Below are positions 21,918 to 23,481 of a DNA stretch of 64,000 nt, piece after piece. Positions within the stretch are counted from its first letter, which is position 1, and every line of letters begins with the position of its first letter. The DNA is from Jannaschia sp. CCS1 (GTDB lineage Bacteria; Pseudomonadota; Alphaproteobacteria; Rhodobacterales; Rhodobacteraceae), in NCBI RefSeq assembly GCF_000013565.1, contig NC_007802.1, positions 1,116,001-1,180,000 on the forward strand, in the 5' to 3' direction. The notes beneath the pieces were generated by a model that was given only the letters and a program-made list of their open reading frames with translations, was not told the origin of the DNA and did not search any database. A program made the translations under genes and the position numbers.

Positions 21918-22328
21918 GTGATACGATTTTCCCACCTCCTCCTCGCTTCGCTCCTCGCAGGTTTGCCGGGTTGGGCCGCCGCCCAGGCGGTTACGCCCAC
22001 CGATCATCCCGGCTTCGTATTGGCCGAGGCCATCGCCGTGCAGGGGTGCTCGCTGCATCAGGATGATGTGAATGCTCTTCTGGGCGATCTGGGGCTTGAA
22101 CCGCCGCAATTTCCGCAGATGGCGGTGCCGTTGATGCGGGACGGATATCTGATGCCTGGCGGGGAAGGGCGATTGCAGCTGGTGAATTGGGGGCTGTGCA
22201 TCGGCGACGAACCGGACGAGGCGGAGAATGGCGGCGCGGCTGCCGCGACCGCGCCGGCGGCGACCGACGCCCAACCGGATGACGAGGCCCAACCGGATGA
22301 CGAGACCACAGAGGCGGCGACCGAGTAA
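21918..22328 (+). CDS. Exported protein with one cysteine-pair domain
   Basis: Not a family I can name. The start is GTG with AAGGAC 8 bases upstream. Residues 1-24 are a signal peptide (RFSHLLLASLLAGLPG, cleavage near AAAQA). Residues about 31-98 form one domain with C44 in VQGC and C94 in WGLC, 50 residues apart. It has the pattern of a hydrophobic helix ending in GC, a helix ending in LGL, a PLMRDGYL turn and a strand ending in C. The following gene carries three copies of the same pattern. The last ~35 residues are a disordered Ala/Asp/Gln tail with a short repeat (AQPDDE twice). It lies 112 bases after nuoD and probably belongs to the nuo transcript; function unknown. Confidence 0.75.
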   Translation: MIRFSHLLLASLLAGLPGWAAAQAVTPTDHPGFVLAEAIAVQGCSLHQDDVNALLGDLGLEPPQFPQMAVPLMRDGYLMPGGEGRLQLVNWGLCIGDEPDEAENGGAAAATAPAATDAQPDDEAQPDDETTEAATE

Positions 22329-22650
22329 GCTACGGAATCCCTCCGTTGTGACGGGGGCGCTGTCGGGTCAGGTTGATGTGACAACGACATTGCACCACCC
22401 GCTGATCGGAGATGCTACCCCCTTCCAGGATCGTCCACTCTCTCTCTCCCCCTCCCGTCGATCTGAGAGGCCCTCCCCATATCAGTCCGCGCGTCTGGCC
22501 TACCTCCCCCTCGGTGGCCCGGCGCGCCCCCCGCTAGCCCGGCGGAAAGAAGGGGTCCGGCCCGGGCGAGGGCGTCTTTCTTGCATTGCGTCAAGAAAGA
22601 CGCCCTACTTATGTCAATCAATCAGCTTCTCTGACCCTTCAGGATATTTC
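22329..22650. other. 322-bp gap between two cysteine-pair protein genes
   Basis: No gene is supported. The stretch contains a C/T-rich run (CTCTCTCTCCCCCTCCC near 22440) and the long perfect hairpin listed separately. A frame open through the region is only an upstream extension of the next gene without a ribosome site. Confidence 0.5.
22569..22606. repeat. Perfect 15-bp inverted repeat within the nuo operon
   Basis: AGGGCGTCTTTCTTG and CAAGAAAGACGCCCT are perfect complements separated by 8 bases (CATTGCGT). The RNA would form a very stable stem-loop 45 bases before the next gene. There is no T tract after either arm, so a classical terminator is unlikely. An mRNA-stabilising or attenuating hairpin, or a dispersed palindromic element, is possible. 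Confidence 0.7.
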
Positions 22651-23481
22651 ATGTTCCGACCCTTGTTTTGTGCCGCCGCTCTGGCTCTTGCGACGCCCAT
22701 TTCCGCCCAATCGACGGAGGCGTTGGCCATGATGGCGGCGATCGAGGGTCTTGGCTGCACGGTCACCAGCGACAACGAAGCCGCGTTGCTGCAGGCGCTT
22801 GATATGAGCACGGCGGCGCTGGAAACGGTGGGCAACGAGTTGCTGGATGCCGGAATTATACAAGTGCGCGACAACACCCTTGTCATGACCGGCGGGGCCT
22901 GTGCCGGTGTGACCGAGGCCGCCGCACCCGCCCCGGCCACCCTTGTGGCAACGATGATTGCCCTGCGCGACAATGGGTGCACGGTGTCCGAGGCGGGGGC
23001 CGATGCCTTGCTGTCGCCGTTGGGACCGCGCGAGGTGATCATGGGTCATTTGCGGGACCTTGACGACACCAATTTCGTGCACATCAGCCGCGATTTAGGC
23101 GGGGTCGTGACGGCGGAGCGTGTGTGCAGCGCGTCCGATGAGGTCATAGCCTCCTTCGCGTCGCAGGTGGCAGATATGCTGGAGTTGCCCGAGCTCAGTC
23201 GCCTGGGCTTCGTCGCCAGCCGTCCCGGGGCCAGGATGCTTTTTGTGGAGTGGATCGCGGCGCAGGGGTGCGAAATCGCCCATGCCGATTCCACCCAAGG
23301 TATGCAGCACCTGGGCTTTGAGAATACGCTGGCGTCCGTTGTTGTGCCATTGCTGGACGGTGGCGTTCTGGAAAGTGGCGCGACGGGTCTGGTGTTGCCG
23401 GCTGACCTGTGCGCAGGGTCGGCGGCGGATCGCCAGGTTGCGGTTGCGGCATTGCCGCCTGAGGACGCGGCGTCCGAGTGA
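22651..23481 (+). CDS. Exported protein with three cysteine-pair repeats
   Basis: I do not recognise this family. The start MFRPLF gives a clean signal peptide (residues 1-19, cleavage after ISA). The mature protein is made of three repeats of about 70 residues, each opening with a helix ending in a GC dipeptide and closing with a second cysteine: C36/C84, C110/C159 and C207/C254, spacings of 48, 49 and 47. Between them lie a small acidic helix, a hydrophobic LG or LD turn, a helix with L-D/L-L, and a strand pair. The same unit occurs once in the preceding gene (C44/C94). Disulfide-stabilised periplasmic domains are the simplest reading. The gene lies between nuoD and nuoE on the same strand. 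Confidence 0.75.
   Translation: MFRPLFCAAALALATPISAQSTEALAMMAAIEGLGCTVTSDNEAALLQALDMSTAALETVGNELLDAGIIQVRDNTLVMTGGACAGVTEAAAPAPATLVATMIALRDNGCTVSEAGADALLSPLGPREVIMGHLRDLDDTNFVHISRDLGGVVTAERVCSASDEVIASFASQVADMLELPELSRLGFVASRPGARMLFVEWIAAQGCEIAHADSTQGMQHLGFENTLASVVVPLLDGGVLESGATGLVLPADLCAGSAADRQVAVAALPPEDAASE

What the first reader, a model, noticed from the sequence alone, without database searches (positions are those of the whole stretch)
21918..23481. Apparently unnamed cysteine-pair domain, one copy then three copies, between nuoD and nuoE
Four units of about 65-70 residues share a helix ending in GC, an LG-type turn, an L-L/D-G turn and a closing cysteine. Cysteine spacings are 50, 48, 49 and 47. 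All units are in two exported proteins encoded next to each other inside the complex I operon. I do not match this to a named domain. Repeat number differing between neighbours suggests duplication of a binding module in the periplasm. Why a nuo operon should carry it is open.
Basis: partly seen in the sequence, partly recalled or inferred. Interest (0 to 1): 0.78.

Follow-up and report, generated by a model that had tools for sequence, protein, structure and literature searches.

The report
Exported two-cysteine repeats in nuo operon
Between two respiratory complex I genes, many members of one bacterial family keep genes for exported proteins built from one to about ten copies of a small unnamed domain with a cysteine pair, whose predicted shape is that of DNA-binding proteins although it is acidic and apparently works outside the cytoplasm.

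Summary
Observation confirmed. U1 (21918-22328) and U3 (22651-23481) hold one and three units, cysteine spacings 50, 48, 49, 47. A profile grown from these four units alone gives 96 matches in 68 of 203 nuoD-nuoE intervals and none in 474 reverse-strand frames. Of 91 distinct units 89 have exactly two cysteines; the other two are cut pieces. Proteins carry one to about ten units. No Pfam, NCBIfam or PDB sequence family fits. The unit model (pLDDT 92.7) is a winged helix. Units are acidic (mean charge -5.3) and follow signal sequences, so DNA binding is unlikely. Address: a profile of nine units from outside nuo finds 33 further matches in 149 genomes, 32 at nuoD|nuoE. In the window's genus 12 of 12 species with nuoE carry U1 and a conserved RNA element without Rfam match. 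Best reading: a lineage-specific exported, probably protein-binding module inherited within, and presumably expressed with, the complex I operon. Whether it touches complex I is open; the passages seen of the Paracoccus denitrificans structure paper name no such subunit.

The parts
21918..22328 (+). U1 gene: 136-aa exported protein, one unit plus acidic tail; GTG start assumed
   Evidence: orthologue upstream of nuoE in all 12 genus species with nuoE, nuoD seen directly before it in 11 of the 12
22011..22202 (+). unit of U1 (cysteines 44 and 94)
   Evidence: E 4.4e-15
22537..22567 (+). RNA element, first hairpin, 9 pairs
22569..22606 (+). RNA element, second hairpin, 15 pairs, compensatory changes in 2 pairs
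   Evidence: the stem pattern occurs once in the genome
22651..23481 (+). U3 gene: 276-aa exported protein, three units
22717..22905 (+). U3 unit a (cysteines 36 and 84)
   Evidence: E 2.6e-13; model
22942..23130 (+). U3 unit b (cysteines 110 and 159)
   Evidence: E 9.9e-11
23233..23415 (+). U3 unit c (cysteines 207 and 254)
   Evidence: E 1.9e-12
20567..21805 (+). nuoD, upstream neighbour
   Evidence: named by reading, no family scan was run on it
23598..24785 (+). nuoE, downstream neighbour
   Evidence: PF01257 E 7.1e-50

Best explanation
The units are one lineage-specific domain family: an exported winged helix of about 60 residues in which one cysteine at the end of helix 1 and one just after the wing are probably joined by a disulfide. 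Gene duplication inside the nuoD-nuoE interval strings one to about ten units into soluble periplasmic proteins or lipoproteins. The acidic surface and extracytoplasmic place argue that the module binds a protein or another envelope ligand, with arrays giving several sites. It sits in the nuo operon by old insertion and vertical inheritance, and is presumably made together with complex I. Shown by computation: homology, two-cysteine pattern, address, acidity, purifying selection. Predicted: fold. Inferred: disulfide, partner binding, co-expression. I think it more likely that it works on the envelope beside complex I than as a fixed subunit.
For: Homology and cysteines: (the profile itself contains the cysteines, so that count leans towards them). 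Fold; the weak Pfam hits include many winged-helix families. Acidity: 72 of 73 units not positive, helix 3 mean -1.26. Address: 65 of 73 matches in 149 genomes lie upstream of nuoE in the nuoD-nuoE gap, with at least one there in 46 of the 48 genomes that have any; reverse test 32 of 33 non-seed matches, in 20 genomes, nine of them in one protein (its seeds had been found with the first profile); 26 of 26 matches in the window plus 80 operon loci, none elsewhere in 17,346 six-frame stretches. Selection. Extracellular partner domain: unit plus LCCL (PF03815, E 1.5e-16) in the window's own genome.
Against: No ligand, disulfide, localisation or expression data. Patchy presence: a short unit in the interval of 45 of 120 genera, so it is dispensable. 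G155's U3 gene carries an in-frame stop in unit 1. Foldseek gives no E below 0.001 in either library; the winged-helix call rests on element order, probability and TM of about 0.6-0.77. The full U3 model is only moderate and its five models disagree in confidence (mean pLDDT 67 down to 36).
Confidence: 0.5

Rival explanations
1. The proteins are periplasmic accessory subunits or assembly factors of complex I in this family, docking through their winged helices on the periplasmic face of the membrane arm.
For: Fixed place inside the nuo operon, rare elsewhere; U1 in 12 of 12 genus species with nuoE and under purifying selection in the pairs measured.
Against: No short unit detected in the interval of 75 of 120 genera although all 120 have nuoD and nuoE there; copy number 1 to about 10; the abstract, figure legend and other passages seen of the P. 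denitrificans structure paper (PMC11522691, 12 of 15 places shown) name NDUFS4, NDUFS6, NDUFA12 and a methyltransferase, no periplasmic extra subunit; no credible PDB sequence match. Whether P. denitrificans has the gene was not checked.
Confidence: 0.2
2. Fast-changing envelope proteins of conflict, such as decoys or immunity proteins against phages or toxins of competitors; arrays diversify binding sites.
For: Presence/absence variation, tandem expansion with diverged units (ten-unit array of G004, mean identity 32%, nine of ten units nearest to another of the array), lipoprotein forms.
Against: Units of U3 cluster by position between species, not by recent exchange; dN/dS well below 1. No match on plasmids or phages, but those single-protein searches reach close relatives only, so this is weak.
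Confidence: 0.12
3. Extracytoplasmic DNA binding, for example in DNA uptake, by true winged-helix recognition.
For: Fold.
Against: Helix 3 and wing are on average negative; 9 of 73 helix-3 and 15 of 73 wing charges are above zero.
Confidence: 0.05
4. Neutral hitchhikers: non-functional or nearly non-functional open frames in a tolerant gap.
For: Absence is common; gaps of 10 bases or less in 24 of 120 genera; one U3 copy is broken.
Against: dN/dS 0.07-0.33 in eight pairs, two cysteines in 89 of 91 units, signal sequences in most frames.
Confidence: 0.04

Closest known systems
Winged-helix DNA-binding domains (for example F93 of STIV 2co5, MarR-type 2hr3, Z-alpha 1j75, diphtheria-toxin repressor family 1c0w, IclR-type 2o0y)
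   Same: Predicted H1-S1-H2-H3-S2-S3 order; Foldseek probability up to 0.99, TM (query) up to 0.72
   Different: No sequence family match; acidic; exported by reading; one conserved cysteine pair; tandem arrays
LCCL-domain proteins (PF03815)
   Same: One protein of the window's genome carries a unit in front of an LCCL domain
   Different: U1 and U3 gave no Pfam match
DUF5333 (PF17267), another small protein family resident in the same operon
   Same: Small protein, exported by reading, in a nuo gap (nuoF-nuoG); DUF5333-like matches in 43 of 70 loci
   Different: Different sequence family and gap
Supernumerary subunits of Paracoccus denitrificans complex I (PMC11522691, passages seen)
   Same: Related bacteria, extra proteins connected with complex I
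   Different: Those named are NDUFS4, NDUFS6, NDUFA12 and a methyltransferase; none is described there as a periplasmic winged helix

Membership tests
Winged-helix fold | three-helix core with a beta hairpin wing in H1-S1-H2-H3-S2-S3 order | tested here: met
   Model pLDDT 92.7; PDB hits. Prediction only.
Winged-helix DNA-binding proteins | basic recognition helix and wing | tested here: not met
   Mean net charge -5.3, helix 3 -1.26, wing -0.55 over 73 units
Winged-helix DNA-binding proteins | sequence match to a curated family | tested here: not met
   73 units against Pfam and NCBIfam; best E shown 0.011 and 0.0049, no family matched by more than two members (25 of 46 and 25 of 34 families printed)
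Complex I accessory subunit | encoded with nuo genes | tested here: met
Complex I accessory subunit | present in the purified complex | not testable with these tools
   needs purification from a bearing species
Disulfide-bonded domain | paired cysteines, bonded | tested here: inconclusive
   Exactly two cysteines in 89 of 91 units; distance in the model not measured
DUF5333 | match to PF17267 | tested here: not met
   U1 and U3: 0 Pfam families at E up to 10

The most novel reading that the evidence does not exclude
A clade-specific periplasmic module of complex I: winged helices reused outside the cytoplasm as protein-docking repeats on the respiratory membrane, with stoichiometry set by the conserved two-hairpin RNA element inside the operon.
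Probability: 0.15. Interest if true: 0.85.

Novelty: new variant of a known kind. Interest (0 to 1): 0.6.

Why it matters
It gives a clear domain family, with sequence rule, predicted fold and address, for proteins that matched no curated family here. It would be a case of the winged helix being exported, held by a cysteine pair and repeated. It also offers a direct test of whether extra genes in alphaproteobacterial nuo operons serve complex I, a question that bears on bacterial models of the mitochondrial enzyme.

Tried and rejected
Sequence search of the PDB: U3 gave only 1o4u at E 0.018, taken as chance. The profile search put TAL-effector chains first (E down to 4e-24), but no single stretch passed on its own; the score is a sum of many 15-residue matches to their repeats, so rejected. 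Further down, a de novo design (8vl4, E 0.0012) and the SelB winged-helix part (1lva, E 0.002) match short stretches; I read them as fold-level echoes, not membership.

Long units: proteins in several intervals seem to have an insertion between helix 2 and helix 3 (cysteines about 65-75 apart). Profile comparison supports kinship to the short units (probability 90%) and of a still longer genus type to these (82%), but the longest against the short gives 17%. They are left out of the counts of short units.

A mobile-element origin is not supported: no match of U3 in plasmids or phages, nor of one lipoprotein form in plasmids; since the same kind of single-protein search finds U3 kin in only 10 of 149 family genomes (U1: 3 of 149), this is weak evidence. 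A dispersed-repeat origin of the intergenic hairpin was rejected: its stem pattern occurs once in the genome. Promoter and terminator scan: nothing beyond shuffles. Outside the family: of 289 genomes of the class, four matched: three that are marked as the window's own family (a fourth row so marked had no match) and one partial match, E 9.8e-5, in an open frame that I recognise as ClpB-like, taken as chance. The first look scored at most 21 candidates per genome, so distant members could be missed.

Literature: searches returned nothing and 91 two listings that did not look relevant; 9, 79, 80 and 90 were looked at as listings. Passages were seen of PMC11522691, PMC8115037 and a reference list of PMC9696053. 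None showed this domain; this is no proof of absence from print. The unidentified reading frames of the Rhodobacter and Paracoccus nuo operons are recalled, not read.

Full report
What is there. Between nuoD and nuoE the window has two same-strand genes. U1 (21918-22328) encodes 136 residues: a signal peptide by reading, one unit, an acidic tail. U3 (22651-23481) encodes 276 residues: a signal peptide and three units.

Is it one family, beyond chance? Starting from only the four window units, an iterated profile run on forward open frames of 203 nuoD-nuoE intervals converged at 96 matches (one a partial overlapping piece) in 68 intervals at E below 0.01; 474 reverse-strand frames gave nothing better than E 6.9 at convergence, 1.3 in the first round. 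After removing identical units, 89 of 91 have exactly two cysteines, 46 to 51 apart in 88 of them and 54 in one; the other two are cut pieces. In 73 aligned units the second cysteine is invariant and the first is present in 72; in the exception, L048, a cysteine sits four residues earlier, one helix turn away, by reading. The profile contains the cysteines, so these counts lean towards them; the absence of any further cysteine in the 89 is not built in.

Names. Neither protein matches Pfam or NCBIfam at E up to 10. Scanning 73 units separately gave no family matched by more than two members; the weak hits include TrmB, F-93, PaaX, MarR, MCM4 and SelB winged helices. No solved structure matches by sequence in a credible way.

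Fold. The model of U3 unit a with 73 sequences has mean pLDDT 92.7 (five models 86.8-92.7) and the elements H2-13, E17-18, H23-30, H34-46, E50-53, E56-59, the winged-helix order. Foldseek's best PDB matches are mostly winged helices: F93 of STIV, MarR proteins, Z-alpha, the diphtheria-toxin-repressor family, IclR, cullin (probability up to 0.99, TM up to 0.72, no E below 0.001). The viral library, also without E below 0.001, lists HTH, MarR, Z-DNA-binding and cullin proteins among many unnamed ones. The whole of U3, with three sequences only, is modelled at pLDDT 67 in the best of five very unequal models, but shows the helix-helix-helix-hairpin pattern three times.

What it is not likely to do. 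The units are acidic: mean net charge -5.3, one of 73 positive; helix 3 and wing are negative on average. With export signals (a lipobox in 43 of 83 unit-bearing frames, a plain hydrophobic start in 38, neither found in 2, by a simple pattern) this speaks against a DNA-binding role.

Address. Within the window and 80 operon loci, 26 matches at E below 0.01 all lie between nuoD and nuoE, none elsewhere in 17,346 six-frame stretches. In 149 genomes, one per genus of the family, 48 have 73 matches; by comparison with nuoE positions 65 of the 73 lie in the nuoD-nuoE gap and 46 of the 48 genomes have one there. Because that profile was built from this interval, I made the reverse test: a profile of nine units from other places (themselves found with the first profile) gave 41 matches in 149 genomes; 8 are its own seeds, and of the other 33, 32 lie at nuoD|nuoE, in 20 genomes, nine of them in one protein; the one exception is partial, E 5.6e-4. 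The units away from the address are a two-unit family in three genomes (G074, G119, G137), a degenerate single copy (G080), a unit gene beside a gene that I recognise as CTP synthase in G231, and a unit fused to an LCCL domain in the window's own genome. Other nuo gaps are also long in this family: nuoE-nuoF median 935 bases (partly the variable tail of nuoE itself), nuoF-nuoG 1410, nuoC-nuoD 306, against 109 for nuoD-nuoE; DUF5333-like proteins lie in 43 of 70 nuoF-nuoG gaps. So extra genes in the operon are common and nuoD-nuoE is not the roomiest gap; this domain is nevertheless confined to that gap within the operon.

Distribution and change. A short unit is in the interval of 45 of 120 genera; 67 of 120 have a gap of at least 200 bases and 24 have at most 10. 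Of the named loci 21 of 78 have one, among them Marivita, Lutimaribacter, Limimaricola, Roseovarius and Sulfitobacter. These are underestimates: L026 (Roseibacterium) has a U1 relative (37%, E 4e-9) that the profile missed. One protein (G004) has about ten units (nine at E below 1e-4; a tenth at 0.04), mean identity 32%, nine of ten having their nearest relative in the same array: an independent expansion. In the window's genus the three U3 units instead group by position between species.

The genus. All 12 species with nuoE (of 13 genomes searched) have U1 upstream of nuoE; in 11 nuoD is seen directly before it, in G159 the piece ends short of nuoD. The slot before nuoE varies: intact U3 in three (window, G152, G156), a U3 with an in-frame stop in its first unit in G155, other exported proteins with short or longer units in most of the rest, and nothing evident in G149. 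U1 and U3 evolve under purifying selection: dN/dS 0.07 to 0.33 in eight pairs; in the close pair G156/G155 it is 0.096 (U1), 0.153 (U3, 227-residue part) and 0.200 for nuoE. Between U1 and the next gene lies an RNA element of two hairpins: 24 pairs, none broken in the 11 species aligned, compensatory changes in two pairs. The twelfth, G160, has the first hairpin sequence unchanged; its second was not aligned. Rfam has only three matches, all below the gathering score, and the first hairpin's sequence was not found with up to 6 substitutions in the loci L021-L250 (L221-L224, which are the window's own, left out).

Mechanism. I favour an exported, disulfide-held winged-helix module that binds a protein or envelope ligand, presumably expressed with complex I because it lives in its operon. 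The LCCL fusion points to an extracellular binding role. A true complex I accessory role is the main rival: the address favours it, the patchy presence and the passages seen of the P. denitrificans structure paper (PMC11522691) do not. Whether P. denitrificans has the gene was not checked.

Noticed in passing
window 22537-22606: Two-hairpin RNA element between U1 and U3: aligned in 11 genus species with compensatory changes in two pairs, first hairpin found in a twelfth; no Rfam match above gathering; stem pattern single copy in the genome. It may be an intercistronic processing or stability element.
   Followed up: partly
window 23598-24785 and 24888-25670: nuoE has a long C-terminal extension whose last 70-75 residues recur in the next gene (65% identity); weak helix-hairpin-helix match in the latter (HHH_5, E 0.0096, below cut-off).
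   Followed up: no
window 28433-28912 and 27408-27836: A DUF5333 protein (E 2.5e-33) and a weak second DUF5333-like protein (E 0.0017, below cut-off) in the nuoF-nuoG gap.
   Followed up: partly
window 20136-20570: A GFA-family gene (PF04828, E 9.6e-15) sits between nuoC and nuoD.
   Followed up: no
L243 3436-4578: In the window's own genome a unit precedes an LCCL domain and a further cysteine-bearing region without a named family.
   Followed up: partly
L232 1069-3498: About ten tandem units in one exported protein between nuoD and nuoE of G004.
   Followed up: yes
L016, about 1492-2330, minus strand: The U3 copy of G155 has an in-frame stop within its first unit, while the rest still looks constrained.
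   Followed up: partly
L047, L051, L087, L107 and others, nuoD-nuoE gap: A recurrent small membrane-protein gene (the L047 copy: DUF4267, E 5.6e-6, just below cut-off) shares the same gap.
   Followed up: no
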